NCBI RefSeq assembly: GCF_013294015.1 | Contig: NZ_JABSNO010000026.1 | Location: forward strand, 1-53,422 | DNA from: Frigoriflavimonas asaccharolytica | GTDB taxonomy: Bacteria > Bacteroidota > Bacteroidia > Flavobacteriales > Weeksellaceae | Direction of reading: 5' to 3' | Length of the DNA stretch: 53,422 nt | In this document: one piece after another, positions 1 through 51,126 of the stretch | Layout of the letters: the number at the start of each line of letters is the position of its first letter | How positions within the stretch are numbered: position 1 is the stretch's first letter | The notes under the pieces: model-generated | What the model saw: the letters and a program-made list of their open reading frames with translations, nothing else | The model's database searches: none | Told to the model about the DNA's origin: nothing | Position numbers and translations under genes: made by a program

Positions 1-975
1 TAATATTTAAATTAATTACGTCAGGAACAATTTTTCTGGCAATGCTACTATTCCAGGCATCAGATTTCAAAATCTTCGAAATTGTGCTCTCGGGTGCTTT
101 TATAGCGACTTCAGCAATATCGCCAACTCTACCACTTTCAAGTGGCATTCCACCTCCTGATGAAGAGTCGTCATAAATATTTCCATCTGCTGCATAGGTC
201 AAACTCCCTTCTGTGCCACTTTCGTACTTACATTCTCCTTGTATTCCCTTATCATTTAAATCTTGTTGACTATGAATGTCATCGCGATATTCCATGTTAC
301 CTAAAGAATTCTTAAACCAATCTTGATTTTCTCTCCCATCAGGATCAATAAATCTAATCGGGTTATTGTATGCATAAGTATAAGGCGACCAACGGCGAGA
401 AGTTTCCGCGAGCGGATCCACCACTCCCCACCGTCCGATATCGGGCATATACATTCTTGCGCCGTAATCATACATCCCGGTTTCTTGTAATTCCTTGCCG
501 TTGTATTTATAATTAGTATAACTTCCATTTCCAAAGTAGGCATCTTCATCTTCATTTCGAAGGAAACTCATTCCGAAAGGATAATAATCGTTGCTGTCGG
601 TTATTACTAATGGGTTGTTTCCATCTTTTTTGTAGCCTAAACTTACTGAACTTCATTCGCAAATTTCTAAAAAGCCTTCGCTTTTTCTCATTTGTCAAAA
701 TGATCTTTATACTGGTAAATATACTCAGAATTTTCGTAATCGTAAAATCCTTCTGCCGTTGGAAAGAACTTAAGTATATTTTGGTAATTTATTGCCTCCA
801 GAAGTTCTGTAAATGCTTCTGGTTCGTAAGCAGTACCACCAGACTCTTGATATACAGCTCCCAAATCTGCACCATTAGAGGAAGCATAATGAAAACCGTC
901 TAGATATTCTGTGGATGAAAGATACATAGTTCCACTTGAATTGGTTATATAGGATTTGCGAAGCTTGGTTAACAT
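1..975 (-). pseudogene. Orphan RHS C-terminal tip, broken by insertion; 3' part runs off the left edge
   Basis: The minus strand carries RHS core sequence in two frames. From 975 to about 690 it reads the EYLDGFHY...FFPTAEGFYDYEN...YIYQYKDH part of the core. From about 645 to 1, in another frame, it reads YYPFGMS, YKYNGKELQETGMYDYGARMY, DIGRWGVVDPLAE and the DPDGRE boundary. Beyond that lies a C-terminal tip of about 90 residues that I do not recognise, cut by the window edge. Between the two parts the expected core is replaced by DNA about 38 nt too long, with in-frame stops and a shifted frame. The N-terminal RHS barrel is absent: the tip begins abruptly near TKLRK. Together with the tip at 1447-2766 this looks like displaced rhs-CT cassettes, which are known to pile up downstream of a functional rhs gene. 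I infer it is non-functional as it stands. Confidence 0.8.
647..683 (-). repeat. Repeat fragment inserted in the RHS core
   Basis: Read on the minus strand, this stretch matches the right-hand part of the dispersed repeat at about 45599-45634. Both contain AAGCGAAGGCTTT followed by a close variant of GAAGTTTACGAACGAAGTTCA. The match sits exactly where the RHS reading frame is lost, so an element fragment probably caused the disruption. The similarity was judged by eye; the exact edges are uncertain. Confidence 0.5.
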
Positions 976-1025
976 TTTTTAATTCCTTTTTATCATACAA
1001 TGGGCAGCGGGAACGATCAAATTAA

Positions 1026-1460
1026 TTAGTGTTTTTTAGCTTTTATTTTGATATTAGAGTTACTATTTTGATTAAAATTATCAAATAGTCCAATATTTGT
1101 TAAATTTGAACATTTTTTTAGATTTTCTATATTAGATGATTGAACTATATCGTAATTGAACTCATTAATAACATAACAACCATTTTCTGCATCGTTATCA
1201 ACATCAAACAAAATTAATTTAATTTGCTTAGACAAATCTTTTATTAAATAACTTTTATTAGAAATAATTATTAATAAATCTTTTTCACATTCTTTTCTAT
1301 GATATAAATATTCTCTGTTGAAAGAGCTTTTCATTATTGTATCACCTATTTTAATGTTTTCAAAATTCGTACCATTAACAACAATTTTTACATCTTGACT
1401 TTTTAATACTAAAGATATTAATGAAAACATGATAATTAAAATCTTATTATTTTTTGTCAT
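1026..1460 (-). CDS. Exported hypothetical protein, probable immunity protein for the adjacent RHS toxin
   Basis: This 144-residue protein starts with a lysine-containing N-terminus and a hydrophobic stretch (residues 7-20) that looks like a Sec signal peptide ending near LKSQ. The rest is lysine-, asparagine- and isoleucine-rich, with two cysteines around residues 94 and 117, and I recognise no family. Its start codon overlaps the end of the RHS tip gene by 14 nt, which implies coupled translation. A small AT-rich gene directly behind an RHS toxin tip is the usual place for its immunity gene. If the toxin acts in the periplasm, an exported immunity protein makes sense. The immunity role is inferred from position only. 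Confidence 0.6.
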   Translation of the reverse strand: MTKNNKILIIMFSLISLVLKSQDVKIVVNGTNFENIKIGDTIMKSSFNREYLYHRKECEKDLLIIISNKSYLIKDLSKQIKLILFDVDNDAENGCYVINEFNYDIVQSSNIENLKKCSNLTNIGLFDNFNQNSNSNIKIKAKKH

Positions 1461-2766
1461 AATGTGAATTTCTTATTGGACTTTGCCCATTGCTAATATT
1501 TTTTAATGCTTGGTTGTGATAATATACATTTTCAATGCCAGAACCAATAGATTTATTTACATTATTATTTTTTAAAAAATCTAAGCCATGGTCTAGCATT
1601 TCGTGAAAAAAAACTGAACTTGCTGAAGGAACTGTAAATTTACCCTTTTCACTTTCTAATTGAAGAGAACCGATAGTTGATTTGTTCATAACTACATATC
1701 CATAACCCATATCAGTTGAATCAAATTTACCTGGTGACCAAAAAAATGCTCCTCCTGAATTACTTACATCTAATTCTACGTCATACATCTTTTCCCACCC
1801 TTCTCTTTTGTTTACACCATTTTCTTGAACATAATACTCATTTCCTTTCTCATCTTTCCCCATTACAAAACCTGGCATATTATAGTCTACCGTAAATGAA
1901 TCTGATTTTTCATTAATCTTTACTTCTATGGTTTTATTCTCATCATTTACAAGCTCTTTCAAACCGTTTATCATTGATAATTGTTCATTATTAAATTTTT
2001 TTGAAAGTTTTTTTAGTAATGAGTTTTTATATCCTAGTTCACCTTTTTTATTAAAATAAAATCCATTATTTTCACCGAATTGTTCCGTTATATATCCAAG
2101 GATTGTATTTTGAGTTTCCTCATCTGTTGCAATAACTCTTTTGCCGTCTGGATCTTTATAGTAAATTGGATTATTTAAAGTGTAGTTATATGGTGTCGCA
2201 TAATGATATATAATTGCCAACGGATCCACAACGCCCCATCTTCCGATATCACTCATGTAGAATCTTGCGCCGTAGTCGTACATTCCTGTCTCTTGAAGCT
2301 CTTTGCCATTGTACTTATAGTTATATAAACTCGCAGTTCCCACAATGCTTTCTTCATCTCTCGGGATGTTCATCCCAAATGGATAGTAATCATTTTGATC
2401 TGTAATTTCTGTAGAATTCCCGTCTTTTCTATAGCTTACTCTTACATTTCCTAAATGATCTTTGTATTGATAAATATACTCATTATTTTTAAAATCATAA
2501 AAACCTTCGGCGGTGGGGAAAAATTGTAAAGCAGCGTTGGGTTCTATTTGCAACATATCGTAGATAAAGGCTTCTTGTTCATAAGAAAACTCCATAGGAT
2601 CTAGTGCATCATAAAATGGTGTTCCTTGAGATTTTAAATAATGAAAACCATCTAAATATTCTGTGACGCTTGCAAATGTTTCATTGTTAGCATTTGCATC
2701 ATTATAAATCTTACGCAGTTTTGTGCCATCTGCTCGATAGAGAAATTTCTTAAAACAAAAAATCAA
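1447..2766 (-). CDS. Orphan RHS core plus C-terminal zincin-like toxin tip
   Basis: The protein has 439 residues. Residues 1-204 are RHS-associated core, including EYLDGFHY, FFPTAEGFYD, YYPFGMN, YKYNGKELQETGMYDYGARFY and DIGRWGVVDPLA. The boundary motif DPDGK begins at residue 205, and a variable toxin domain follows. Near its end is HEMLDHGLDF (His388, Glu389, His393), which resembles a zinc-metallopeptidase helix but has three residues rather than two between Glu and the second His. No RHS barrel or secretion domain precedes the core, and the first possible start is a TTG, so expression in place is doubtful. It may be a silent tip that could be recombined onto a full-length RHS gene. The following gene overlaps it and is the likely immunity gene. 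The RHS assignment is firm; the peptidase activity is inferred. Confidence 0.8.
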   Translation of the reverse strand: MIFCFKKFLYRADGTKLRKIYNDANANNETFASVTEYLDGFHYLKSQGTPFYDALDPMEFSYEQEAFIYDMLQIEPNAALQFFPTAEGFYDFKNNEYIYQYKDHLGNVRVSYRKDGNSTEITDQNDYYPFGMNIPRDEESIVGTASLYNYKYNGKELQETGMYDYGARFYMSDIGRWGVVDPLAIIYHYATPYNYTLNNPIYYKDPDGKRVIATDEETQNTILGYITEQFGENNGFYFNKKGELGYKNSLLKKLSKKFNNEQLSMINGLKELVNDENKTIEVKINEKSDSFTVDYNMPGFVMGKDEKGNEYYVQENGVNKREGWEKMYDVELDVSNSGGAFFWSPGKFDSTDMGYGYVVMNKSTIGSLQLESEKGKFTVPSASSVFFHEMLDHGLDFLKNNNVNKSIGSGIENVYYHNQALKNISNGQSPIRNSHYDKK

Positions 2767-20133: not shown

Positions 20134-20718
20134 ATGTTAAAGAATAAATTTACAAAAAACCTAGTAGAAGCGGGCTGTGACGAAGCTGGAAGAGGTTGTC
20201 TTTGCGGACCAGTGGTTGCCGCCGCAGTGATCATAAATGAGAAATTTATGCATGAATTAATTGATGATTCTAAAAAATTAACCAAAAAAACGAGATTAGA
20301 ATTAGAAATTTTCATAAAAGAAAACGCAATCGAGTATGCAATTGCAGAAGTTTCTCCAAAATTAATCGATGAGCACAATATATTAAATGCAAGTATTCAC
20401 GCGATGCACTTGGCTGTAGATCAATTAAAGATTCGTCCAGAATTTATTTTAGTAGATGGCAATAGATTTCATCCTTACCCAGAAATTCCACATCAATGCA
20501 TCGTAAAAGGTGACGAAAAATTCCTTTCTATAGCTGCAGCTTCCATTTTAGCAAAAAACCATAGAGATAGATTGATGCTCAAATTGCACGAGGAATTCCC
20601 CAATTATGGCTGGAATACCAATATGGGATATGCTACAAAAACGCATAGATTAGCCTTAAAGAACTTCGGAATTACAAAGCACCATCGGAAATCCTTTCGA
20701 TTGAAATATGAAGATTAA
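20134..20718 (+). CDS. rnhB: Ribonuclease HII
   Basis: This 194-residue enzyme opens with EAGCDEAGRGCLCGPVVAA (catalytic Asp16 and Glu17), followed by DDSKKLTKKTR and the FILVDGNRF motif with a further catalytic Asp. SIAAASILAKNHRD is a family hallmark. It cuts the RNA strand of RNA-DNA hybrids and removes misincorporated ribonucleotides. It is monocistronic on the plus strand, convergent with yidC, and ends in a shared terminator. Confidence 0.95.
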   Translation: MLKNKFTKNLVEAGCDEAGRGCLCGPVVAAAVIINEKFMHELIDDSKKLTKKTRLELEIFIKENAIEYAIAEVSPKLIDEHNILNASIHAMHLAVDQLKIRPEFILVDGNRFHPYPEIPHQCIVKGDEKFLSIAAASILAKNHRDRLMLKLHEEFPNYGWNTNMGYATKTHRLALKNFGITKHHRKSFRLKYED

Positions 20719-20751
20719 GATTTTCTTCAATAATTTTTAAAAATAAAAAAT

Positions 20752-20785
20752 AAAAAAAGTGGAAGCTGCAACTTCCACTTTTTTT
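20752..20785. terminator. Bidirectional terminator between rnhB and yidC
   Basis: GTGGAAG (20759-20765) pairs with CTTCCAC (20772-20778); A-run before and T-run after serve both strands. Confidence 0.88.
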
Positions 20786-20817
20786 AACTTGAGATTTCAG
20801 ACTTCAAATCTAAAAAA

Positions 20818-22635
20818 TTATTTCTTTTTGTTAATATTTTTAGTATTTCCTTTTTGCGCTGCTTGTTGCGCTTGTGCTGTTTCCATCATCTCTCTCATTC
20901 TTTTGCCAAATTTACCTTCTTTTTTAGCCGGTTTTTCTTTATTGGATTGTATTTGAGCATGAATTTTTTTCTCGTCTAAAATTAAATATTTAATCACAAG
21001 AATAATGATAATATTAATCGCATTTGAAACGAAATAATACCAAGATAAACCAGATGCAGAAGTATTTAAGAAAAATAGGAACGTAACTGGGAATATATAC
21101 ATCAACACTTTCATATTTGGCATTCCTGGCGCAGTTGGCTGTTGCATATTTCCTGCTGTAAGTATTGTATATATAAGAATAACCGCCGTACAAGCAATAG
21201 CAAATACACTTAAATGCTCACCTAACAATGGAACGTGAAATGGCAATTTAATTAAATCATCATAAGCTGTTAAATCTTTTGCAAACCAAAAACTCTTCCC
21301 TCGTAAATCTATAAAATTTGGGAAAAATCTGAATAATGCATAGAAAATCGGAACTTGCAAAACGGCGGGTAAACATCCTGCCATCTGATTAACGCCAGCT
21401 TTCCTATAAACAGCCATTGTTTCTTGCTGTTTCTTCATTGCATCTCCATCTTTATACTTCTCGTTTACTTCGTCTATTTCCGGACGGATAACGCGCATCA
21501 TCGCACTCAACTTATGTTGTTTAAACATCACTGGCGATAAAATTAATTTTACAACCACCGTCATCAAAAATATTACCCAACCAGCAGCAATTCCCCATCC
21601 TGCAATAAGATTGTACATTGGCATGAAAAACCAACGGTTCAATGCGCCAATAAAAGACCAACCCAATGGTAAAATTTCATCAAAATTCTTGTTATATTCT
21701 TTTAATAATGGCAAGTCCAATGGCATGAAATACCATGTGAAATCTTGGTTTAATTCTGCACCATTCATGGCTACATTTCCAGAAAACTCTAGGGTTTTCA
21801 AATACTCTCCCTCATCTACAGTTACTTGACTACCTTTCGATTGTGTGAAACCATTTTTTGCTTCTATCACAGAACTAAAAAATTGTTGCTTTACACCTAT
21901 CCAGTTTAGAGTTTCATCTGGTTCGTCCATGGCTTTGTTGCCATCATAATCGTAATCTTTGTAATTATTAAAAGCATAAGAAAACTCAGAATGCGTTTGC
22001 TCTTGAGATCTACCTTTCTCCAAATTTCTTACGTTATAATTCCACGCAAATTTCGCAGCATTATCACTTGTAATTTGGGACAAACCTTTGGTTCTGATTT
22101 TAAAATCTACCGTATATTTAGGCATCAAAGTATACACAAATTGGATAACTGCACCATTTAATTGATGCGTCATCGTAACTACATTTCCTTTTACGGAAGG
22201 CGTAAATACAAGATCTTTTGTTTTAATAATTTTCCCGGTTTTGTCTTTAAATTCAAAACCATAATTCGCAGAATTTTTATGAATTAATAATAATGGCAAA
22301 TCAGATTCGTCTCTCTTTGCATCGTATGCTTTATATTCTGGCAATTCTACATTAGAAATTTGCGCACCCAAAGTGGAAACTTCTAATTTTAATTGTTCAT
22401 TTTGCAAAGGAACCGTTTGTATAGAAGCAGCATTGATGTTGGGATTCACGTTTTCTACAGATGCAATTTTTGTATTATTAGCAGAAACTTGTTCCGTTTT
22501 GGCTACTTCTTTCTGCTTAAGTGCATCTTCTTTCTGCGTTTTGCTTTGAAAGTAGATCATCGCTCCAACCATAATAATGGTGAAAAGCATAAAACTAATA
22601 ATCTGACTTTTATCTAATCCGTTGTTTTGCTGCAT
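20818..22635 (-). CDS. yidC: Membrane protein insertase YidC
   Basis: The protein has 605 residues with the Gram-negative layout: an N-terminal membrane anchor (residues 8-26), a large periplasmic beta-domain (about residues 60-340), and the conserved C-terminal insertase domain. The latter includes GWGIAAGWVIFLMTVVVKLI, the cytoplasmic hairpin, and GCLPAVLQVPIFYALFRFF with a conserved positive loop. The basic C-terminus (NTKNINKKK) may contact ribosomes. It inserts and folds inner-membrane proteins with or without SecYEG. In many Bacteroidota yidC follows pyrG; here the dus remnant and cassette lie upstream instead. Confidence 0.96.
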   Translation of the reverse strand: MQQNNGLDKSQIISFMLFTIIMVGAMIYFQSKTQKEDALKQKEVAKTEQVSANNTKIASVENVNPNINAASIQTVPLQNEQLKLEVSTLGAQISNVELPEYKAYDAKRDESDLPLLLIHKNSANYGFEFKDKTGKIIKTKDLVFTPSVKGNVVTMTHQLNGAVIQFVYTLMPKYTVDFKIRTKGLSQITSDNAAKFAWNYNVRNLEKGRSQEQTHSEFSYAFNNYKDYDYDGNKAMDEPDETLNWIGVKQQFFSSVIEAKNGFTQSKGSQVTVDEGEYLKTLEFSGNVAMNGAELNQDFTWYFMPLDLPLLKEYNKNFDEILPLGWSFIGALNRWFFMPMYNLIAGWGIAAGWVIFLMTVVVKLILSPVMFKQHKLSAMMRVIRPEIDEVNEKYKDGDAMKKQQETMAVYRKAGVNQMAGCLPAVLQVPIFYALFRFFPNFIDLRGKSFWFAKDLTAYDDLIKLPFHVPLLGEHLSVFAIACTAVILIYTILTAGNMQQPTAPGMPNMKVLMYIFPVTFLFFLNTSASGLSWYYFVSNAINIIIILVIKYLILDEKKIHAQIQSNKEKPAKKEGKFGKRMREMMETAQAQQAAQKGNTKNINKKK

Positions 22636-22829
22636 GTTATATTTTTAATAATGAAAATAAGTAAAACTAATTTTAATTGATATCTACCTTTGAATTTTCA
22701 GTTGACAAAAATACTGAAATTTTTGGAATCCATTGGAAATTTTGAGGATACTTTAATTATAAATAATATAGCGATCTTATATATAGATGAAAGCTGATAA
22801 ATATAAAATGATCAAAAATTAATTTTCCT

Positions 22830-22837
22830 TAAATTTG
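22830..22837 (+). promoter_or_regulatory. -7 box of the dus remnant
   Basis: TAAATTTG ends 4 nt before the ATG of the truncated dus copy, the same spacing as at the intact gene (25017-25024), although the surrounding bases differ. Confidence 0.55.
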
Positions 22838-22841
22838 CAGC

Positions 22842-22979
22842 ATGATAAAAATCGGTAACATAGAATTGCCAGAATTTCCACTTGTGCTTGCACCAATGGA
22901 AGATGTGAGCGATCCACCCTATCGAAGATTGTGTAATATGCATGGTGCAGATATGATGTATTATGAATTTATTTTTTGA
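22842..22979 (+). pseudogene. Truncated 5' end of a dus gene (45 codons)
   Basis: The first 135 nt match the start of the intact dus gene at 25029 with about nine differences; most are in third codon positions. The copy then runs into unrelated DNA and stops after 45 codons (ending MMYYEFIF). Mainly synonymous differences mean both copies were under selection as coding sequence before the split, so they look like alleles from two lineages rather than a fresh tandem duplication. The last nucleotides overlap the 3' end of the minus-strand papain-fold gene. Confidence 0.85.
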
Positions 22980-23550
22980 TTTCTTTTAACTGATATTTAA
23001 GAAAAAAATCTGCGGCGTAATAACATAAAGTTGAATCTTGAACGAATATTCTTTCAATTACATTCAATTTTACACATTTTTTATTTTGATTAAATTTTAA
23101 ATGGTTTGCATTCTCCAAAACTTGATAAACAAATTCTGAACAATACAAACCATTAAATGTTTTAGGATTTAAGTCAAAATAATACTTTACTTGCGTCATA
23201 CTATCAAGGCGTATCTTAATCTTATTATATTCAGTAGCACTAACTTTCAATTTCCAAATTCGATTATCTTTTACATCTGGTGAATTCCAAAATTTTTTTC
23301 GATTTTCTTGTAGTAATGATGATCCTTCACTATTTTTTTCATTATAACTAATATTGTAAATTCTTGAATCAATAGTGTTATCCAAAGAAAGTCCGATGTG
23401 AGAAATTTTTAAATTATTATTGTTAAACTTTAACACCAAATCACCTTCTTTACTTTGAGAGTATCGACTTAAAATGTAAATATATTTTTCTTTTTCTTGC
23501 GAACATGAAAACAAACATAAGATACATATAAAAGAAAATAATATTTTCAC
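22969..23550 (-). CDS. Lipoprotein with permuted papain-like (YiiX/YaeF, NlpC/P60-type) fold
   Basis: This 193-residue protein has a lipoprotein signal ending CLFSC (Cys16). The domain opens with KEGDLVLKF and an active-site histidine in ISHIGLSLD (His51), and the catalytic cysteine is in LYCSEFVYQVL (Cys137). This His-before-Cys order is that of circularly permuted NlpC/P60 proteins such as YiiX, which cleave amide or ester bonds in peptide, lipid or peptidoglycan substrates. It overlaps the preceding gene by 4 nt and its stop lies inside the dus-derived repeat. It is the last gene of the cassette. A role in envelope attack or defence is inference. Confidence 0.7.
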   Translation of the reverse strand: MKILFSFICILCLFSCSQEKEKYIYILSRYSQSKEGDLVLKFNNNNLKISHIGLSLDNTIDSRIYNISYNEKNSEGSSLLQENRKKFWNSPDVKDNRIWKLKVSATEYNKIKIRLDSMTQVKYYFDLNPKTFNGLYCSEFVYQVLENANHLKFNQNKKCVKLNVIERIFVQDSTLCYYAADFFLKYQLKEIKK

Positions 23551-24029
23551 AATCTATAAGAAAATTGAGCTCCACTATACATGATACTTCCTCTTGCTGT
23601 TGTACTGAAAGTATTGTACCACTTAATTCCGTATTGGAATCTATTTTCTTGATTAAACATTATTAAAATTCCTAAATCCATTCCGAAATTATTTTTTCTT
23701 TCGAACAGAATAGCATTTTTATCTGTAATGTAATTAAAATTTGCAATGGACGCAATTTCTGTATTGCTGTTTAAAATTTTATAATTTATTCCCAAATCAT
23801 ATTTTGATATATCAGTTTCGTCGTTATTATTTAAATTAAAATGCGAATAACCAGTATTTCCACTTATACTTATTTTTTGAGAAACATCGTAATGCATCCC
23901 TACATTGAATAAGGCAGCTGAATTTCTTTGCACACTTAAAATTCCCGTTCCAGCATCTAAAATAAATTTCTCTTGACTATTTATATTAATAGAAAATATA
24001 AATATAAATAATATCGCTATTTTATTCAT
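23547..24029 (-). CDS. Hypothetical exported beta-strand-rich protein
   Basis: The protein has 160 residues with a clear signal peptide (residues 1-18, ending INSQ). The rest alternates short polar and aromatic strands (for example SISGNTGYSHF, FGMDLGILIMF, FQYGIKWYNTF) and ends in GAQFSYRL. That pattern suits a small outer-membrane beta-barrel, although the last residue is leucine rather than phenylalanine. It overlaps the papain-fold lipoprotein gene by 4 nt and follows the 276-residue lipoprotein gene after 2 nt, so all three are translated as a unit. No family is recognised. Confidence 0.55.
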   Translation of the reverse strand: MNKIAILFIFIFSININSQEKFILDAGTGILSVQRNSAALFNVGMHYDVSQKISISGNTGYSHFNLNNNDETDISKYDLGINYKILNSNTEIASIANFNYITDKNAILFERKNNFGMDLGILIMFNQENRFQYGIKWYNTFSTTARGSIMYSGAQFSYRL

Positions 24030-24031
24030 AT

Positions 24032-24862
24032 TTACTTATTTTTTGGTGATGTCATTGTATATGCTAATCCACTTGCAGCAACTGCACCTGAAACGATAAT
24101 TGCACCACCTACAGGAGGCGCACCAGCAGCAGGGATTGCTGCAACAGCCGCACCCAAAGCATCAGATACTCCAATTATCAACCAATGAAACCATTTTCTT
24201 CCACCTTCACCTTTTGCTTCACTCTGACTTGCAATATTTAAATAATTATACCAAAAACAATTAGAATATTTTGCTGTTGCTACTGCAGAAAACAAAACCT
24301 TTTTCTCTTCTGTTGTAAAACTATTAGGACCAACTATTATACTGTTTTCAAAATTATTAAGAAATAAATTAACATCTGCATAAGACGGTTCAGTGTTATT
24401 ATTAACTTTATCAAAAAAATAATCCACTAATTCACTCATTTTTGTTTTTGCCGCAGAAGATATCGCCATATTACCTATAACGTTAGAATATCCATTTACG
24501 AAATCACTTGCTCCGTAAGTTAAAGCTGCAGAATTTGGTGAAGTATAATTTGAATTATTGTAATTTTGAAAATTACTATTATCAAATGCTATTTTTTCGA
24601 CTTTAAATATTAAACTGTCAACATTCTCTACATTGTCATCATTTTCAACAAGATAATCATATAAAATTTCGTTGTGAATTTGCCCAACAAAATTATAAGG
24701 ATTATCTTGATTGACAGTTATTTCACATTCAGGTTTAGATTGAAAATTTTCAATCGAATTTTTACCAAAATGTTCCGGTTCTGCAACTACTTCATTTCTA
24801 CTGCAATTTAAAGAAATTAAAAACATAGAAACTAACCCAACTTTTACAATTAAATTTTTCAT
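24032..24862 (-). CDS. Hypothetical lipoprotein with glycine/alanine-rich hydrophobic C-terminus
   Basis: This 276-residue lipoprotein has lipobox LISLNC (Cys20). The middle is asparagine- and serine-rich and largely helical. The C-terminal 50 residues are striking: a KGEGGRKWFHWL stretch, then an Ala/Gly/Pro-rich hydrophobic segment (VSDALGAAVAAIPAAG and beyond) of glycine-zipper type that could insert in a membrane. It is the first gene of the cassette, directly facing the intact dus. The C-terminus resembles bacteriocin-like or pore-forming segments, but no family is recognised and the function is unknown. Confidence 0.6.
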   Translation of the reverse strand: MKNLIVKVGLVSMFLISLNCSRNEVVAEPEHFGKNSIENFQSKPECEITVNQDNPYNFVGQIHNEILYDYLVENDDNVENVDSLIFKVEKIAFDNSNFQNYNNSNYTSPNSAALTYGASDFVNGYSNVIGNMAISSAAKTKMSELVDYFFDKVNNNTEPSYADVNLFLNNFENSIIVGPNSFTTEEKKVLFSAVATAKYSNCFWYNYLNIASQSEAKGEGGRKWFHWLIIGVSDALGAAVAAIPAAGAPPVGGAIIVSGAVAASGLAYTMTSPKNK

Positions 24863-24890
24863 AATATTTTGTTTTTAAAATTATTGAGAT

Positions 24891-24928
24891 AAAATTAAAA
24901 TTAAAATTATAATTAAAATTAAAATTAT
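24891..24928. repeat. AAAATT hexamer microsatellite
   Basis: Six or so imperfect AAAATT units between the cassette and dus, 28 nt upstream of the first cassette gene on the minus strand. Such tracts can change length by slippage and lie where the cassette promoter must be. Confidence 0.6.
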
Positions 24929-25016
24929 GCAAGTTTTTTTAATAATTTTTCCAAAAAATTTTAAATCTAACGTAAAGCACTATGAAATCTACTTTTTCTT
25001 TTTATTCAAAATTGTT

Positions 25017-25024
25017 TATTTTTG
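25017..25024 (+). promoter_or_regulatory. -7 box of dus
   Basis: TATTTTTG followed by CCCC and the ATG at 25029. Transcription is expected to begin within a few bases of the start codon, giving a leaderless mRNA. Confidence 0.6.
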
Positions 25025-25028
25025 CCCC

Positions 25029-25163
25029 ATGATAAAAATCGGTAACATAGAATTGCCAGAATTTCCACTTTTGCTTGCACCAATGGAAGATGTGAGCGAT
25101 CCGCCGTATCGCAGATTGTGCAAAATGCATGGAGCAGATATGATGTATTCTGAATTTATTTCT
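25029..25163 (+). repeat. Right copy of the dus 5'-end direct repeat
   Basis: The first 135 nt of dus, matching 22842-22976 at about 93% by eye. The two copies are 2,187 bp apart in the same orientation. Confidence 0.85.
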
Positions 25164-26021
25164 TCGGAAGGTCTGATTCGGGATGCCATGAAATCTAAAC
25201 AAAAATTGGATATTTTCGATTATGAACGTCCGGTTGGAATTCAAATTTTTGGTGGAGATGAAGAAGCGATGGCGCTTTCTGCAAAAATTGTAGAAACCGT
25301 AAATCCAGATTTAGTAGATATCAATTTTGGTTGCCCAGTAAAAAAAGTGGTTTGCAAAGGAGCTGGAGCAGGCGTTTTGAAAGATATAGATTTGATGATT
25401 CGCTTGACAAAAGCGGTTGTAAATTCCACGCATTTACCAGTTACGGTGAAAACCAGATTAGGTTGGGACAATGATTCTATCAACATAATGGAAGTTGCAG
25501 AAAGATTGCAAGATTGCGGGATAAAAGCATTGACGATTCATGCAAGAACGCGTGCACAAATGTACAAAGGAGAAGCAGATTGGAATTATATTTCTGCCGT
25601 GAAGCAAAACCCAAACATCGAAATTCCAATTTTTGGCAATGGCGATATCAATTCTGCCGAAAAAGCCCTGGAATACAAAAATAAATATGCTTGCGATGGA
25701 ATTATGATTGGTCGCGCTGCAATTGGCTATCCTTGGATTTTTAATGAAATAAAACACTTCTTCAAAACTGGTGAAAAATTAGCAGAACCAACTGTAGAAA
25801 TGCGTTTGGAAGCCGTGAAACAACATGCAGAATGGAGTGCAGATTGGAAAGGCGAAAAATTAGGATTGATAGAAATGCGTCAACATTACAGCAATTATTT
25901 CCGTGGGATTCCGCATTTTAAAGATCACCGCAGAAAATTTCTGGAAGTGATGACTTTAAATGAAATAAATGATTTGATTGGGGAAACGATGGAATTTTAT
26001 CGGGAGTTTGAAATGCACTAA
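25029..26021 (+). CDS. dusB: tRNA-dihydrouridine synthase
   Basis: This 330-residue flavoenzyme reduces specific uridines in the tRNA D-loop. FPLLLAPMEDVSDPPYRRLC binds FMN. DINFGCPVKKVVCKGAGAG carries the catalytic cysteine and lysine region, LTIHARTRAQMYKG is the Dus hallmark, and GNGDI and GIMIGRAAIGYPWIF form the phosphate-binding end of the TIM barrel. An upstream in-frame start at 24927 would run through the promoter, so ATG 25029 is chosen; it is also where the duplicated copy begins. Function appears intact despite the neighbouring cassette. Confidence 0.94.
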   Translation: MIKIGNIELPEFPLLLAPMEDVSDPPYRRLCKMHGADMMYSEFISSEGLIRDAMKSKQKLDIFDYERPVGIQIFGGDEEAMALSAKIVETVNPDLVDINFGCPVKKVVCKGAGAGVLKDIDLMIRLTKAVVNSTHLPVTVKTRLGWDNDSINIMEVAERLQDCGIKALTIHARTRAQMYKGEADWNYISAVKQNPNIEIPIFGNGDINSAEKALEYKNKYACDGIMIGRAAIGYPWIFNEIKHFFKTGEKLAEPTVEMRLEAVKQHAEWSADWKGEKLGLIEMRQHYSNYFRGIPHFKDHRRKFLEVMTLNEINDLIGETMEFYREFEMH

Positions 26022-26231: not shown

Positions 26232-28628
26232 TTAAGCTCCATAAGGAATCCAAATATTTTTAATTTCTGTGGCGTGTCTCAAAAATTCTTCGCCTTCTCC
26301 TTGTTCTGCAAGCATCCAGTTTCGGTATTTTCCGTACATGCACCAAGATCTTTTCATAGAATCTGCGGCAAGAGTCTCTATGGTTTTGCAATCTCCATTT
26401 CCGAAATTCCAAATGCCATCTACATCATAATGTTTCGCCAATTCTGTACTTAATTCTACTTGATTTCCTGTAACAATATTCACCGTTCCAGCTGGAACAT
26501 CAGAAGTTTCTAAAATTTGATAAAAATCTGTCGCAGAAAGTGGAGATTTCTCCGAAGGCACAACTACAACTGTATTTCCCATAGAAATTGCAGGAATTAT
26601 TGCCGAAATAAAACCTAACAACGGATTTTCATCTGGACAAATAATTGCCATCACTCCAATTGCTTCTGGCATTGCTAACGTTGTCATTCTTTGTACGGTA
26701 GAATGCGCTTTTCCATCGTATTTATCTGCCATTGCAGCGTAATAATAAATTCTTTCTATAGATTTTTCTACCTCATCTTCCGCAGATTTCAAACTTTGAT
26801 TGGTTTGTGAAGCGATTCTTTTTGCAAATTCTTCAGCACGATAAGAAAGATTTTCTGCTAAATAATACAAAACTTGCGCACGAGAATGTCCCGTCATTCC
26901 GCTCCAAGATTTTTCATTTCTCGCAGCTTCTACAGCATTTCTCAAATCTTTTCGGTTTCCTTCGCCAACTTCTCCAATTTTATTTCCGTAAAAATCCATC
27001 ACATCCAAACTATATCCACCATCTGGTCGCGCTTGTTTTCCGTTGATGTACATTTTTGCAGTTTTATCAATACCCTCAAATCTTGAGTCTTGGTTCTCAA
27101 CTCTTGGCTCTTGATTCTCCGTTCTTGCTTCTAAAATCGGTTGATCTGCAAATTCTTTATTCAATTTTGGTTTCACATATTCGTACAAACCTTCTTTTCC
27201 GCCTTCTCTTCCGAAACCAGATTCTCTGTAACCACCAAATCCAGAACTTGCATCAAATTGATTGGTGCAATTGATCCAAATACTTCCCGCTTTTATTTTT
27301 GGTGCAATATCTAAAGCGATATTGATATTTTCTGTCCAAATACTTGCAGCCAAACCATATTTTGTATTGTTTGCCAACGCAACTGCTTCATTATGTGAAC
27401 GAAAAGTCATCGCTACCAAAACAGGTCCGAAAATTTCTTCTTGGGCAATCGTGGAAGTTGTAGAAACATTCGTAAATAAAGTGGGTGGATAGAAATAGCC
27501 GTTTTCTGGCATTTCGTTTTCACATTGAAACAATTCGCAACCTTCTTCTACACCTATTTTTACTAAATTTTTAATGGATTCTATTTGATTTTTAGAAACG
27601 ATAGCTCCCATATCAATCGATTTATCCATAGGATTTCCGATTCTCAATTTCGCCATTCTCGTTTTTAATTTTGCATAAAATTTCTCTGCAACAGATTCTT
27701 GAACCAACAATCTAGAACCAGCACAACAAACTTCACCTTGGTTGAACCAAATTGCATCTACAACACCTTCTACCGCAGCGTCAAGATCCGCATCTTCAAA
27801 AACGATGAATGGGGATTTTCCGCCCAATTCTAATGAAATTTTCTTTCCAGAACCAGCAGTTTCTCTTCTCAAAATTTTACCAACATTGGTAGAACCTGTG
27901 AACGCAACTTTATGAACATCAGCATGATTGACCAAAGCTGAACCTGCAACAGTTCCACTTCCGGTTACAATATTGACAACACCTTTTGGCAAACCAACTT
28001 TTTCGCAAATTTCTGCAAAAAGAAGTGCCGAAAGTGATGTTAATTCTGCAGGTTTTAGAACAACAGTATTTCCCATTGCCAAAGCTGGTGCTATTTTCCA
28101 AGCGAGCATCATCAATGGAAAATTCCATGGTATTATTTGTCCGATGACGCCAACTTCTTGATAATCTTTCATTTCTGTATCCATCAATCTTGCCCAACCT
28201 GCATGATGATAAAAATGACGAATAGCAATTGGAATATCTATATCACGGGTTTCGCGGATGGGTTTTCCGTTGTCTAAAGTTTCTAAAACCGCAAACAATC
28301 TGGAATGTTTTTGCAATTGACGCGCAATTGCGTACAAATATTTTGCACGTTCAAAACCACCGATTTTCACCCATTCTGGAAGAGCTTTGTTGGCAGCTTT
28401 CACGGCGAGATCTACATCTGCTTCTCCTGCTTCTGCAATTTCTGCAAGAAATTCTTGATTGGCAGGATTATAGGTTTTTTCAAATTTTTCAGAAATTGGT
28501 TTTTGCCATTCTCCATCAATGAAAAGATTAAATTTTTTTTGATGATTTTCTAAATATTCTATAGCTGCAGAAGCGCTTTCTGGTGCAGTTCCGTATTCCA
28601 TGGTGTTGTATATTTCTTTGATGTCCAT
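26232..28628 (-). CDS. ALDH16-type double aldehyde dehydrogenase
   Basis: The protein has 798 residues with two ALDH domains in tandem. The first (about residues 35-480) is complete: IPWNFPLMM, the NAD-binding GSTNVGK, ELGGKSP with general-base Glu267, and catalytic Cys302 in GEVCCAGSR. The second (about residues 520-798) keeps the cofactor-like fold (ICPDENPLLGFISAIIPA) but lacks a recognisable catalytic Cys/Glu pair. This arrangement is that of the ALDH16 family. It would oxidise an aldehyde with NAD(P). deoC, whose product acetaldehyde is a natural substrate candidate, lies two genes upstream in the same direction. The linker at about residues 499-518 is encoded by a DNA repeat also found between genes. 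Confidence 0.88.
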   Translation of the reverse strand: MDIKEIYNTMEYGTAPESASAAIEYLENHQKKFNLFIDGEWQKPISEKFEKTYNPANQEFLAEIAEAGEADVDLAVKAANKALPEWVKIGGFERAKYLYAIARQLQKHSRLFAVLETLDNGKPIRETRDIDIPIAIRHFYHHAGWARLMDTEMKDYQEVGVIGQIIPWNFPLMMLAWKIAPALAMGNTVVLKPAELTSLSALLFAEICEKVGLPKGVVNIVTGSGTVAGSALVNHADVHKVAFTGSTNVGKILRRETAGSGKKISLELGGKSPFIVFEDADLDAAVEGVVDAIWFNQGEVCCAGSRLLVQESVAEKFYAKLKTRMAKLRIGNPMDKSIDMGAIVSKNQIESIKNLVKIGVEEGCELFQCENEMPENGYFYPPTLFTNVSTTSTIAQEEIFGPVLVAMTFRSHNEAVALANNTKYGLAASIWTENINIALDIAPKIKAGSIWINCTNQFDASSGFGGYRESGFGREGGKEGLYEYVKPKLNKEFADQPILEARTENQEPRVENQDSRFEGIDKTAKMYINGKQARPDGGYSLDVMDFYGNKIGEVGEGNRKDLRNAVEAARNEKSWSGMTGHSRAQVLYYLAENLSYRAEEFAKRIASQTNQSLKSAEDEVEKSIERIYYYAAMADKYDGKAHSTVQRMTTLAMPEAIGVMAIICPDENPLLGFISAIIPAISMGNTVVVVPSEKSPLSATDFYQILETSDVPAGTVNIVTGNQVELSTELAKHYDVDGIWNFGNGDCKTIETLAADSMKRSWCMYGKYRNWMLAEQGEGEEFLRHATEIKNIWIPYGA
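27075..27132. repeat. CTTG-rich repeat forming the coding linker of the ALDH gene
   Basis: A run of TCTTGRNTCT-like units within the ALDH frame, translated on the minus strand as alternating ENQ, EPR, VEN and DSR units. Its segment 27104-27132 matches 29610-29638 downstream of deoC at 24 of 29 positions, same strand. Confidence 0.65.
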
Positions 28629-29467: not shown

Positions 29468-29500
29468 AAATTTATAAATCTTTCATTTATTCTAAAATCT

Positions 29501-29572
29501 GCGCCCCGACTTGAGTGGAAATCCTTTTTTTGCAAAAAAAAGATTGGGAACGGAAGGCGGAAATTGGCGCCC
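29501..29572. repeat. GCGCC-ended dispersed repeat, copy 1 (72 bp)
   Basis: Starts GCGCCCCGACTTGAGTGGAA and ends GGCGGAAATTGGCGCCC. The middle, ATCCTTTTTTT-GC-AAAAAAAAGATT, can form a hairpin. It matches copies at 35453-35548 (inverted) and 45460-45641. It sits between deoC and the ATP-grasp gene. Confidence 0.85.
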
Positions 29573-30706: not shown

Positions 30707-31651
30707 TTACTTTTTTAAAGAAATAAAAACGGGAAAATGATCACTATAACCGCCTAAATATCTTCTGCCAGCAAAAGTACGGTAGGGTTTTTTGATGGAA
30801 CTATTTTCCGTATCGCACATTTCTGGTGGATTAAAAATTTTTGCTTTTGAAAACCGAAGGGCAGAATCGCTTTTGAAAAATGCATCGGAAATGATCAACT
30901 GATCAAAAAGCAAACCTTCTTTGATATGATAAGTAGAAAATTCTTTGTGCTGAAATAAGGGTGAAAATACATTTTTCAGCGCATTATTTTCTCCTTCATT
31001 TTCGGTAAGTTTCAAGAGATTTAGGTCATCTGGATTTTCATTAAAATCTCCTATTATCAGAATAAATTCATCTTTTGGAATTTCAGAAATTTTCTTTTTT
31101 AAATCGTTGATGATGTAATCGCGTTTCGGTTTGTTCACATCTTTTTCACGTTTTGAAGGAAGATGACAAACAAAAAGGTGTAAGTTTTCTCCAGAAAATT
31201 CTGCCTGACAATACAAAATATCTCTGGTGGTATCTATATATTCGTCTTTATTTTCATTAATTTCAAACAGATAACTGATAGGTTCGGAATGGGTGATTTT
31301 TATTTTTTCGGGATCATACAAAAGCGCGACATCTACTCCACGTTCGTCTAAAGATTCGTAATGTATGTATTTAAATTTATCAAAAAATGGGGGTAGTTTT
31401 ATCAATTCTTGCAGCACTTTTTCGCCTTGAATCTCAGCTACACCAATAAGCATAGGAAGTTTGCCTTCTTGATTTTCTACCATTTGAAAAACTCGGGCAA
31501 TTCTGTTTAATTTATGTATAAATTTTCTTTCGTCCCAATTTTGCAACCCAGAATTCTTTGAACCTTTAGAAATTGCAGTATCATTATCTGGAAGAAAAAA
31601 ATTCTCGGTGTTGTAGAAAAAGATGAGTTCAGAATCGGAACGGTTGGTCAT
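30707..31651 (-). CDS. Endonuclease/exonuclease/phosphatase-family protein
   Basis: This 314-residue protein has the EEP fold: the metal-binding YNTENFF opening, IGVAEIQGEKVLQEL with the catalytic Glu, RGVDVALLYD, LFVCHLPSKR with a His, IIGDFNENPDD (Asp-Asn pair) and the terminal GYSDHFPVFISL with the catalytic Asp-His. Family members hydrolyse phosphodiesters in DNA, RNA or phospholipids. No signal peptide is seen, so a cytoplasmic nuclease or phosphatase is likely. It precedes deoC by 80 nt and may be independent of it. Confidence 0.85.
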   Translation of the reverse strand: MTNRSDSELIFFYNTENFFLPDNDTAISKGSKNSGLQNWDERKFIHKLNRIARVFQMVENQEGKLPMLIGVAEIQGEKVLQELIKLPPFFDKFKYIHYESLDERGVDVALLYDPEKIKITHSEPISYLFEINENKDEYIDTTRDILYCQAEFSGENLHLFVCHLPSKREKDVNKPKRDYIINDLKKKISEIPKDEFILIIGDFNENPDDLNLLKLTENEGENNALKNVFSPLFQHKEFSTYHIKEGLLFDQLIISDAFFKSDSALRFSKAKIFNPPEMCDTENSSIKKPYRTFAGRRYLGGYSDHFPVFISLKK

Positions 31652-35434: not shown

Positions 35435-35452
35435 AATTTTAATTTATTTTTT

Positions 35453-35548
35453 GGGCGCCAATTTCCGCCTTCCACTTCCAATCTTTTTTTTGTTGGCTTC
35501 GACAAGCTCAGCCACCAAAAAAAAGGATTTCCGTTCAAGTCGGGGCGC
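35453..35548. repeat. GCGCC-ended dispersed repeat, copy 2 (96 bp, inverted)
   Basis: The reverse complement of copy 1 at its ends. The poly-T/poly-A centre is interrupted by about 24 nt containing TTCGACAAGCTCAGCC with a partial palindrome around it. Part of that motif (TTCGACAAGCTCA) also flanks copy 1 at 29578-29590. Confidence 0.85.
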
Positions 35549-35591
35549 AATGTTTCGCTTTGATTTACTTTCTATTTCAAGTTTAAAAAGC

Positions 35592-45376: not shown

Positions 45377-45735
45377 TTCTGCTATTTTAGCTCACGGATA
45401 TCACAGAATATTTATATTTACTTCGAACTTATCAATAATCTTTAAATATGCGAAAATCTGCGCCCCGACTTGAGTGGAAATCCTTTTTTTTTACATTTTG
45501 AAAAAAAAAGATTGATTCAGTTTTTTTTATAAATTTTTATTTGATTCATCGAAACTCGTTCCTCGTTTTGAGAACGGAAGGCATAAACGAAATTGAAGCG
45601 AAGGCTTTAATTGAAGTTTACGAACGAAGTTCATGGCGCCCAAATAAGCTCTAAAATATTTGTAGATACAGATTTTTATTTAAAATTTTAGCAACAATTT
45701 AAAATTCCTTATTTTAGACCAATCAAAAATAATTT
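45377..45735. other. Intergenic region holding repeat copy 3
   Basis: 359 nt without a gene between the P-type ATPase and the S46 peptidase. About half is the dispersed repeat at 45460-45641; a TATTTTAG box lies near 45710, shortly before the peptidase gene. No other feature is visible. Confidence 0.7.
45460..45641. repeat. GCGCC-ended dispersed repeat, copy 3 (182 bp)
   Basis: Starts GCGCCCCGACTTGAGTGGAA like copy 1 and ends TCATGGCGCCC. The centre is expanded and contains GAGAACGGAAGGC, then AAGCGAAGGCTTT and ACGAACGAAGTTCA, a part that recurs inside the broken RHS gene. Confidence 0.85.
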
Positions 45736-48041: not shown

Positions 48042-50414
48042 TTATTTTGTTTTTCCAGCTGCTTGCATTGGGTTTATAGTTCCTTTACTTGCACCTCTAC
48101 TCACTTCTCCATTTTTTTGTTTAAATACTTGAAATTTAGAAGCTGGTTCAGAAGTTCCTCCCCAGAAATTATTTGTAGTATCAATATCCGCAGTTTCTTT
48201 CATTGGATCTAATTGTACGGAAACTAATTTCTTGTCGAAATAATAGGTTTTGGAAACTTGTTTTTCATTTTTTCTCCAGATTTGAGCCGGTATTTTATCC
48301 GTTTTTTTGCTGCCATCTTCGAAGGTAAATTCTAAAATGATTGGCATTACCAAACCACCTTTATTCTCAAAATCTAATTGATAGGCTTTGATGTTTTTTA
48401 AACTTTCCTCGTCTTTTTTGCTTGCTTTCTCAAAATTATCTACGGTGATAGATTTTTTGATAGTGGTATCTACTTTTTCTAAACCACGATTGTATCTCCA
48501 ATAGAAATCTTGAGTTTCTTTATCTTTATCTGTGTAGAACGTAATATTTTTGTCGGCTTTGTTTCTAACTTTAGAAATATCTGTAAAATCGTTTTTCAGC
48601 GGTTTATCTACTGTATAGCTTATTTCTCTAGGTTTTGGATCTGTATTAAAATCTGCTTCGGCGATACTCACTTTCGTTAAAGCAATATCTACAGGATCTG
48701 TTCCGTAGAACCAACCTCTCCAAAACCAATCTAAATTTTCTCCACTTGCATCATTCATTGTGCGGAAAAAATCTGCAGGTTCTGGATGTTTAAATGCCCA
48801 TCTTTTGCTATAAGTTTTGAAAGCTTTATCAAAAAGTTCTCTTCCCATTATGGTTTCTCTCAAAATGTTTAAGCCTGTTGCAGGTTTAGAATAAGCATTT
48901 GGTCCAAATAGATTGATGTTTTCAGAATTCGTCATTATTGGTTCCAATTGATCTTTTGGCAATTTCATATAATCTACGATGGTATGAGCTGGCCCTCTTT
49001 TGCTTGGGAAATTTGGATCCCAAAGTTCTTCGGCTAGATATTCTACGAAAGTATTCAAACCTTCATCCATCCAAGACCATTGTCTTTCGTCTGAATTGAT
49101 GATCATTGGAAAATAATTGTGCCCAACTTCGTGAATGATAACGCCTAACATTCCGTTTTTTGTAGCTTCAGAATAGGTTCCATCTTTTTCTGTTCTTCCA
49201 TAATTAAAGCAAATCATCGGATATTCCATTCCATTTGCAGCTTCTACAGACTGTGCAACTGGATAAGGATAGGGAATTGTGAAATCTGAATAGGTTTGTA
49301 TGGTATGTACAATAGCTTTTGTAGAATATTTTCTGTACAAACCATAGGCTTCTTTTGGATAGAAACTCATCGCCATTACTTTCTGCTTATTTTCTGGAAT
49401 TACGGTTTGCATTCCGTCCCAAACGTACTTTCTAGAAGATGTCCAGGCGAAATCTCTCACATTTTTGGCATCATAAACCCAGGTTTTCCTTTCTTTAGAT
49501 TTATTCTTTTCAGATTTTTTTGCCTCTTCAAGTGTTACAATTTCCACGGGTTCTTTAGAAGATTCTGAGCTTTTGTATCTGGCAAATTGTGCAGGCGTCA
49601 AAACCGACTGATAATTTACATTTTCTCCTGTAGAACCTACAATATGATCTGCAGGTACATTCATACTTACCTTAAAATCTCCAAAAACCAAAGCAAATTC
49701 GCCTCTTCCGGTAAATTGATTGTTTTGCCAACCTTTGAAATCGCTATAAACACACATTCTAGGATACCATTGCGTCATCGTGAAAATATGATTACCATCT
49801 TCTGGAAAAAATTCATAACCGCCACGTCCACCTTGCTTCATTCTATTAGGAATATTGTAGTTCCAATCTATTTTAAAGGTAATTTTCTCGCCAGATTTCA
49901 ATATTTGTGGCAAATCTATGCGCATCATTGTTTTATTGATGATGTACGGTAAAGCTTTACCATTTGCATCTACAATTTTTTCTATTTTCACACCAAATCC
50001 ATTGTCTTTTTCAGGCAAATCGGTTGTTTTCAATCTATCTGTTGTGCTAGAATTTGGCAAAGATGAAGGAGATTGATAATTGGCATCTTTTACATTAGAT
50101 TGCTGATTTTCATCCAATTGCATCCAAAGATATTCTAAATCATCCGGAGAATTGTTGTGATAAGTAATCGTTTCTGATCCTTTTAAATTAAGTTTATCTT
50201 CATCCAAATAAGCATTGATGTTGTAATCTGCTTTTTGTTGCCAGTATTGATGTCCAGGTGCACCAGAAGCTGTTCTATACACATTTGGTGTAGGAAGAAT
50301 TGTGCCAAGCATTTCAAATTTGTTTCCGTGATTACTTTCCGGATTGTTTTGAATATTTTGTGCAAATGCAATGGAAGAAACCATTAACGAAAGTAATGAT
50401 AATTTGATTTTCAT
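48042..50414 (-). CDS. M1-family zinc aminopeptidase, exported
   Basis: The protein has 790 residues with a signal peptide (residues 1-18). An N-terminal beta-domain is followed by the gluzincin catalytic domain. The zinc site is VIIHEVGHNYFPM (His428, Glu429, His432) with Glu451 in WMDEGLNTF, the exact HExxH-x18-E spacing. The usual GAMEN exopeptidase motif appears in modified form as AANGMEYPMI. The remaining C-terminal region is large and ends KGTINPMQAAGKTK. It probably trims peptides in the periplasm or at the surface. It ends in a terminator shared with the S46 gene. Confidence 0.9.
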   Translation of the reverse strand: MKIKLSLLSLMVSSIAFAQNIQNNPESNHGNKFEMLGTILPTPNVYRTASGAPGHQYWQQKADYNINAYLDEDKLNLKGSETITYHNNSPDDLEYLWMQLDENQQSNVKDANYQSPSSLPNSSTTDRLKTTDLPEKDNGFGVKIEKIVDANGKALPYIINKTMMRIDLPQILKSGEKITFKIDWNYNIPNRMKQGGRGGYEFFPEDGNHIFTMTQWYPRMCVYSDFKGWQNNQFTGRGEFALVFGDFKVSMNVPADHIVGSTGENVNYQSVLTPAQFARYKSSESSKEPVEIVTLEEAKKSEKNKSKERKTWVYDAKNVRDFAWTSSRKYVWDGMQTVIPENKQKVMAMSFYPKEAYGLYRKYSTKAIVHTIQTYSDFTIPYPYPVAQSVEAANGMEYPMICFNYGRTEKDGTYSEATKNGMLGVIIHEVGHNYFPMIINSDERQWSWMDEGLNTFVEYLAEELWDPNFPSKRGPAHTIVDYMKLPKDQLEPIMTNSENINLFGPNAYSKPATGLNILRETIMGRELFDKAFKTYSKRWAFKHPEPADFFRTMNDASGENLDWFWRGWFYGTDPVDIALTKVSIAEADFNTDPKPREISYTVDKPLKNDFTDISKVRNKADKNITFYTDKDKETQDFYWRYNRGLEKVDTTIKKSITVDNFEKASKKDEESLKNIKAYQLDFENKGGLVMPIILEFTFEDGSKKTDKIPAQIWRKNEKQVSKTYYFDKKLVSVQLDPMKETADIDTTNNFWGGTSEPASKFQVFKQKNGEVSRGASKGTINPMQAAGKTK

Positions 50415-50480
50415 AAAATAAAGTTAATTAATAATAAAAGGTTCCCAAATTTACAGAAAATAACGCAGAGAAATATTAAT

Positions 50481-51059: not shown

Positions 51060-51102
51060 TTTTGGTTAAATTTTTGAATGCACTATTTTACGAAAAATAA
51101 TT

Positions 51103-51110
51103 TAACTTTG
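51103..51110 (+). promoter_or_regulatory. -7 box of the toxin-antitoxin operon
   Basis: TAACTTTG matches TAnnTTTG, 16 nt before the antitoxin ATG (51127). Confidence 0.5.
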
Positions 51111-51126
51111 TATAAAATCACTCCAA

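What the first reader, a model, noticed from the sequence alone, without database searches (positions are those of the whole stretch)
22842..25163. Three-gene envelope cassette inserted at the 5' end of dus, flanked by 135-bp direct repeats
The first 135 nt of dus occur twice, 2,187 bp apart, in the same orientation and each with its own -7 box 4 nt before ATG. The differences are mostly synonymous, so the copies are diverged alleles, not a fresh duplication. This is the footprint of an element that enters dus and restores a working gene with its own 5' end. dusA-targeting islands are known in Proteobacteria; a 2-kb version without integrase, in a flavobacterium, would be new to me.
Basis: partly seen in the sequence, partly recalled or inferred. 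Interest (0 to 1): 0.8.

Follow-up and report, generated by a model that had tools for sequence, protein, structure and literature searches.

The report
Private insertion scar at dus gene
Three envelope-protein genes were apparently spliced in once, long ago, at the start of a tRNA-modification gene in this flavobacterium, leaving a decayed copy of the gene's first 45 codons behind; it looks like an ordinary one-off recombination scar, not a new kind of mobile element.

Summary
The duplication is real. A 149-nt direct repeat (22829-22977 and 25016-25164, 91% identical, 2,187 bp apart) holds the promoter box and first ~45 codons of dus. The right copy opens the working gene; the left one stops after 45 codons. 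Between them lies a compact leftward three-gene operon: a YiiX-like lipoprotein, a possible small beta-barrel, and a lipoprotein. The element reading is not borne out. A second dus 5' end was found in this genome only: 1 of 320 family genomes and 1 of 395 order genomes, 311 with a match. A pattern scan of viral contigs found none. The insert has no recognisable integrase or terminal inverted repeats. In the 87 relatives with yidC and dus on one contig they are at least 23.5 kb apart, so no empty site is available. 'Mostly synonymous' is weak: 5 synonymous against 3 replacement changes, the latter all in the left copy at residues conserved in relatives. That fits an old event followed by decay. 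Best reading: one lineage-private acquisition by illegitimate recombination, probably homology-assisted. A decayed dus-type island is possible but unsupported. Interest is low.

The parts
22829..22841 (+). Left (original-looking) dus promoter box, TTAAATTTGCAGC, directly before ATG
   Evidence: 12 of 13 nt identical to the same stretch in Halpernia (L033) and in L044
22842..22979 (+). Left dus 5' remnant: 45 codons then TGA; carries L15V, K32N, S41Y (and S45F at the junction) at positions conserved in relatives
   Evidence: residues L15, K32, S45 in 80 of 80 and S41 in 77 of 80 named loci
22969..23550 (-). Cargo gene 1: 193-aa lipoprotein-like protein of the YiiX / Peptidase C92 type (by its homologs; the window protein itself does not match that Pfam model at E 0.1); H51 and C137 invariant in the alignment; its stop codon lies in the dus remnant
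23547..24029 (-). Cargo gene 2: 160-aa protein with an apparent signal peptide (read by eye), possibly a small outer-membrane beta-barrel (weak: OMP_b-brl E 0.28)
24032..24862 (-). Cargo gene 3: 276-aa apparent lipoprotein with Gly/Ala-rich hydrophobic C-terminus; divergent relatives mostly in one large genus of the family
24863..25015 (.). Intergenic region between the divergent cargo operon and dus; not alignable with the region upstream of the left copy
25016..25163 (+). Right copy of the repeat: promoter box TTATTTTTGCCCC plus first 45 codons of the working dus
25029..26021 (+). Intact dus (tRNA-dihydrouridine synthase, 330 aa, Pfam Dus E 1.4e-83)

Best explanation
A single, lineage-private gene-acquisition scar. 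Shown: a 2-kb AT-rich three-gene block lies between a dead 5' remnant of dus and the intact dus gene. Inferred: a DNA piece carrying the three genes followed by a closely related dus 5' end entered the cell. Its dus end recombined by homology with the resident dus, so the incoming promoter and 5' end became those of the working gene. The other end was joined illegitimately inside the resident dus at about codon 45, which stranded the resident promoter and first 45 codons next to yidC. The stranded piece has been decaying since, while the working gene stayed under purifying selection. This is homology-facilitated illegitimate recombination with dus as the accidental anchor; no dedicated recombinase is needed.
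For: Private: a second dus N-terminus in 1 of 320 family genomes (317 with a dus match) and 1 of 395 order genomes, 311 of them with a match (the two sets overlap). Left and right are sisters, 126 of 135 nt against at most 117 of 135 to any of 80 named loci, as expected for a same-lineage donor or an in-place copy. The left copy's 3 replacement changes in 44 codons hit residues conserved in 77-80 of 80 loci; purifying selection on both copies is unlikely (P = 0.011). The left promoter box is the one closer to other species' (12 of 13 with Halpernia; right at most 11 of 13). The body of the right dus keeps part of the downstream context: a relative of the gene 30707-31651 also follows dus in 14 of the 24 nearest named loci L032-L055. 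Cargo gene 1 runs into the dus remnant for its stop codon, as at an illegitimate join. Cargo GC is 0.24-0.31 against 0.38 for dus and 0.33 for the window. Natural transformation is described for Riemerella (search listing with abstract openings; that Riemerella belongs to this family is recalled), and homology-facilitated joining in naturally competent species (abstract).
Against: No donor or empty-site genome was found; the genus holds one genome. The pattern of 5 synonymous and 3 replacement changes does not reject a plain in-place duplication (P 0.07-0.18). Divergence is uneven along the repeat (1 of 72 in codons 1-24, 7 of 60 in codons 25-44, P = 0.023, post hoc), which no model here predicts. 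Upstream of the box the two copies are not alignable, although a donor only 7% diverged in coding sequence might be expected to share more. The homologous crossover itself leaves no visible mark. Low GC is not special to the cargo: its genes rank 2nd, 3rd and 11th lowest of 46 window ORFs.
Confidence: 0.5

Rival explanations
1. In-place duplication by capture of a linear DNA fragment at a staggered break: filling in of about 149-nt overhangs duplicated the promoter box and 5' end of dus on both sides of the insert, so both copies come from the same resident gene and diverged afterwards.
For: The left copy has the native-looking upstream, and the right copy's similarity begins only 13 nt before ATG, as fill-in would give. 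Substitutions are compatible: P 0.07-0.18 if the left copy is neutral and the right constrained. Left and right are sisters. Needs no donor dus.
Against: A duplication this long by fill-in is unusual (general knowledge, no call). Slight excess of synonymous changes. The 13-nt upstream match may be just the promoter motif.
Confidence: 0.22
2. A dus-targeting integrative island that has lost its integrase, or was mobilised in trans: att site inside the dus 5' end, the element carrying its own promoter and 5' end.
For: Topology matches dusA islands: the element supplies promoter and 5' end of dus, and the old 5' end is left at the far side (PMC4482086 passages; PMC8409611 section 13).
Against: No recognisable recombinase in the insert; no other dus N-terminal copy in 319 other family genomes or in the order sample, none by pattern scan in IMG/VR; repeat 149 nt, not the 21-bp imperfect repeat; the left end falls at a gene's stop codon; no terminal inverted repeats.
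Confidence: 0.12
3. Tandem duplication, or import of a whole second dus, followed by deletion that fused the 5' end of one dus to the end of cargo gene 1.
For: The same end product; the surroundings are visibly rearranged: yidC is not next to pyrG, its neighbour in G012 and G013, and a block that lies on that side of yidC in G012, G020 and G022 is inverted.
Against: Needs two events; no trace of the rest of a second dus in this draft genome.
Confidence: 0.13
4. Assembly artefact or contaminant join.
For: Draft genome of 67 contigs.
Against: Copies differ at about 9% of sites, so they are not one sequence assembled twice; the left copy shows decay at conserved codons.
Confidence: 0.03

Closest known systems
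dusA-specific genomic islands and prophages (Farrugia et al. 2015, PMC4482086, passages seen; Vibrio IMEs, PMC8409611, passages and section 13 seen)
   Same: Insertion at the 5' end of a dus gene; incoming DNA supplies a new promoter and N-terminal coding end; the old 5' end remains at the other flank.
   Different: Those carry a dedicated integrase and 21-bp imperfect attachment repeats and recur in many genomes. Here there is no recognisable integrase, the repeat is 149 nt, and it is seen once. One such IME brought an N-terminus 61% identical over 35 residues; here the two dus ends are 93% identical in nucleotides.
Homology-facilitated illegitimate recombination (abstract of PMC3240628; proposed for variable segments in passages of PMC2884548, and for V. 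cholerae effector modules in passages of PMC5361080)
   Same: One end joined by homology, the other illegitimately; adds foreign genes and can leave a displaced piece of the resident locus beside them.
   Different: Inferred from sequence only; the homologous arm here is a tRNA-modification gene and the donor is unknown.
Gene-end-restoring prophage sites such as e14 in icd (recalled, from no call)
   Same: A diverged copy of a gene end replaces the host's and keeps the gene working.
   Different: Phage integrase and phage genes there; 3' end of the gene rather than the 5' end.

Membership tests
dusA-specific integrative islands | Integrase gene inside the element next to dus | tested here: not met
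   Only three ORFs of 60 aa or more lie wholly in the insert; none matches a recombinase in Pfam, NCBIfam or PHROGs
dusA-specific integrative islands | About 21-bp imperfect attachment repeats at the termini | tested here: not met
   Repeat is 149 nt at 91%; the published att consensus is in a figure, not held, so the motif itself was not compared
dusA-specific integrative islands | Element restores promoter and 5' end of dus | tested here: met
   Right dus is intact with its own box before ATG; the left 5' end is displaced. That the right end came from outside is inferred
dusA-specific integrative islands | Recurs at the same site with varied cargo | tested here: not met
   1 of 320 family genomes, 1 of 395 order genomes, 311 with a match
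dusA-specific integrative islands | Excises to give circular element and intact dus | not testable with these tools
   Needs PCR or reads
Homology-facilitated illegitimate recombination scar | One junction in long homology shared with the resident locus | tested here: inconclusive
   dus-like sequence of 144-149 nt is shared with the left copy at the right junction, but the crossover itself leaves no visible mark
Homology-facilitated illegitimate recombination scar | Other junction without extended homology | tested here: met
   Left junction at about 22972-22979 between dus codons 44-46 and cargo gene 1; similarity to dus ends there
Homology-facilitated illegitimate recombination scar | Donor sequence with the cargo beside a single related dus | tested here: inconclusive
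   No close cargo relatives found: 13 other family genomes for gene 3, at most 32% identity, and 15 others for gene 1, at most 33%; gene 2 not searched in genomes; no second genome of the genus held
Transposon or composite element | Terminal inverted repeats and transposase | tested here: not met
   Longest exact inverted match between the two ends compared is 8 nt; no transposase match
Phage- or plasmid-borne cargo | Cargo homologs on phages or plasmids | tested here: not met
   No match at E 1e-5 for genes 1, 2 and 3 in the plasmid and phage collections; cargo was not searched in IMG/VR

The most novel reading that the evidence does not exclude
A minimal, integrase-less dus-targeting unit in flavobacteria that carries its own dus promoter and 5' end and is moved in trans, so that the working dus is a chimera that disguises each insertion.
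Probability: 0.05. Interest if true: 0.6.

Novelty: new member of a known kind. Interest (0 to 1): 0.2.

Why it matters
Read as a scar it is a clean example of how a small block of surface-protein genes can enter a bacterial genome without a mobile element, using a conserved gene as landing pad and keeping it working. It also warns that 'gene end duplicated around cargo' is not by itself evidence for an integrase-type island.

Tried and rejected
Recurrence was sought in the family, the order and viral contigs: none. Seventeen genomes, this one included, had two dus matches; they were rechecked with the N-terminal 45 aa alone. Of the 16 others, 15 have one N-terminal match and one (G260, 73% complete) has none, so their second matches are not N-terminal copies. 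In one search, 84 of 395 genomes have no match at all and say nothing.

Empty-site search: yidC and dus places were cross-matched. 118 genomes are listed for both genes, 87 with both on one contig; closest 23.5 kb, median 82 kb. The lists are cut at about 150 rows (I added family rows), so the rest of the 320 were not compared. By eye, in the 40-genome sample no genome other than the window's own has yidC beside dus.

Self-comparison of dus loci: only the window had a second 5' end. For the 30 short genome-search loci it is not valid: minus-strand ones were read at the wrong end, and 1.5-kb flanks cannot show a 2-kb insert. I discard those rows. The same mis-orientation makes several L003-L020 rows meaningless, and they enter its per-site tallies; I therefore take residue conservation and best identities.

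Conserved synteny of the cassette was rejected: no homolog of gene 1 or gene 3 above 33% identity in the other 319 family genomes; the weakest rows there (E about 7e-4, and one with 6 stops inside) are doubtful. Cargo gene 2 was not searched in genomes. Defence genes: no PADLOC hit. Solved-structure search: only a weak YiiX hit for cargo gene 1 and nothing for gene 3 below E 0.5. No structure was predicted, because the stated rule of that tool does not list genome-search loci and single-sequence folds are usually poor.

Papers: two full-text searches for dus-targeted islands in Bacteroidetes or flavobacteria gave 0 papers and 1 paper; the latter (PMC6764341, passages seen) cites Farrugia et al. 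but describes an Arg-tRNA site. A first search gave 20 papers, 15 listed. This covers the held library only.

Full report
What is there. The window is one whole contig (C26, 53,422 bp) of a 3.43-Mb draft genome in 67 contigs, the only held genome of its genus. Its nearest named relatives by dus are Chryseobacterium, Halpernia, Amniculibacterium, Epilithonimonas and Elizabethkingia, so I place it in Weeksellaceae (family name recalled, not from a call). A direct repeat of 149 nt lies at 22829-22977 and 25016-25164, spacing 2187 bp, 91% identical (BLAST 92.4% over 144 nt). The right copy opens the intact 330-aa dus gene 25029-26021. The left copy is the promoter box and 45 codons, then a stop. 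Between them, on the minus strand and with overlapping or nearly touching ends, are three genes.

The cargo. Gene 1 goes with the permuted papain-like YiiX group by its homologs: 8 of 10 members of the alignment match Peptidase_C92 at E 0.1 or better (best 7.7e-10), H51 and C137 are invariant, and YiiX is the best solved structure although weak (E 0.0036). The window protein itself does not match that model. Gene 2 is only weakly like a small outer-membrane barrel (E 0.28). Gene 3 is an apparent lipoprotein with an Ala/Gly-rich end; 13 other family genomes, 12 of them in one genus, have a relative at E 0.001, at most 32% identical (20-28% in the alignment). Gene 1 has relatives in 15 other family genomes, at most 33% identical. 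None of the three genes has a match in the plasmid or phage collections at E 1e-5, and none a PADLOC match. GC is 0.24, 0.26 and 0.31 for genes 1 to 3, against 0.38 for dus and 0.33 for the window; they rank 2nd, 3rd and 11th lowest of 46 window ORFs, so low GC is suggestive only. The stop codon of gene 1 (22969-22971) lies in the dus-derived sequence; its C-terminus is a few residues shorter than most homologs, so few if any codons were lost at the join.

How private it is. Of 320 family genomes, 317 have a dus match; the 17 with two matches (this one included) were rechecked with the first 45 residues, and only this genome has two N-terminal copies. Of 395 genomes drawn from the order, partly the same ones, 311 have a match to the N-terminal 62 residues and only this one has two. 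A pattern scan of IMG/VR gave no confirmed relative of the dus N-terminus. Among 80 oriented dus loci, 76 with at least 3 kb upstream, none has a second 5' end nearby.

Synteny. yidC follows pyrG in G012 and G013 and lies beside rnhB, with argS nearby, in G012, G020, G022 and G024. Here pyrG is on another contig, and the M1 peptidase-hupE block that lies on the upstream side of yidC in G012, G020 and G022 sits inverted at 48-53 kb. Of 118 relatives listed for both yidC and dus, 87 have them on one contig, 23.5 kb apart at the least, median 82 kb. So the neighbourhood was rearranged, before or with the event, and no empty site can be shown. Downstream of dus the context is partly kept: a relative of the gene 30707-31651 (exonuclease-like by my reading) follows dus in 14 of the 24 nearest named loci. 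The gene upstream of dus varies between clades.

Which copy is old. The copies are sisters: 126 of 135 nt identical, against at most 117 of 135 (right) or 112 (left) to any of 80 named loci. In codons 1-44 there are 5 synonymous and 3 replacement changes (L15V, K32N, S41Y), all three in the left copy; the original residues are kept in 80, 80 and 77 of 80 loci. If both copies had stayed under selection until recently, this many replacements is unlikely (P = 0.011; close pairs of relatives show 17 replacement to 251 silent codon changes). If both were neutral, so few is unlikely (P 0.007-0.028). A neutral left and constrained right copy from an in-place duplication is not rejected (P 0.07-0.18), nor is an imported allele followed by decay (all). 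For scale, left and right differ silently at 5 codons, right and Halpernia at 13: the event looks old, but within this lineage. The left promoter box matches Halpernia's in 12 of 13 nt, the right one the best of 24 loci in 11. The box next to ATG is the usual dus promoter in this family (30 of 33), so its presence on both copies is not a special feature of the insert. Changes are uneven along the repeat (1 of 72 against 7 of 60, P = 0.023, chosen after seeing the data); I have no explanation.

Mechanism. The topology is the one known for dusA islands, where the incoming element supplies promoter and 5' end (passages of PMC4482086; section 13 of PMC8409611). But two hallmarks tested, integrase and recurrence, fail, and the repeat is far longer than the 21-bp att repeats. 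Homology-facilitated illegitimate recombination gives the same topology in one step and needs no special enzyme (abstract of PMC3240628; it is proposed for small variable segments and for displaced effector genes in passages of PMC2884548 and PMC5361080). Natural transformation is described for Riemerella species (search listing). Shown: repeat, decay of the left copy, privacy in the samples searched, the left join. Inferred: import, the homologous arm, order of events.

Verdict. A real but ordinary, private and old insertion scar. It is a nice example, not a new type of element.

Noticed in passing
window 1-2766 (minus strand): An RHS-type gene end (1447-2766) with a small gene behind it (1026-1460), followed by a second, frame-broken RHS core fragment with a different tip (about 1-975); core pieces repeat at 413-592/2221-2394 and 698-768/2453-2523. 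RHS is my reading of the translation. Looks like a displaced orphan RHS tip, possibly a similar displacement process.
   Followed up: partly
window 29477-29546, 45437-45514, 35452-35558: A REP-like intergenic repeat of about 40-70 nt; 43 matches at E <= 0.001 to the 70-nt query in the window's own genome, a few of them the two strands of one place.
   Followed up: partly
window 20134-22635 and 48042-53302: The order rnhB-yidC-pyrG seen in G012 (yidC-pyrG also in G013) is broken here; pyrG is on contig C36, and the M1 peptidase-hupE block is inverted relative to G012, G020 and G022.
   Followed up: partly
window 26232-28628: A 798-aa double aldehyde-dehydrogenase-domain protein; among the rows listed for 39 other genomes one full-length relative was found, in G003 (75%), and two adjacent pieces matching both halves in G037 (list cut).
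   Followed up: no
L142 (contig C36 end): The end of the pyrG contig appears to code for the C-terminus of a tyrosine integrase, read by eye from the sequence printed.
   Followed up: no
window 22829-22841 and 25016-25028: In this family dus usually starts about 4 nt after a -7-type box, which suggests leaderless or very short-leader dus transcripts.
   Followed up: partly
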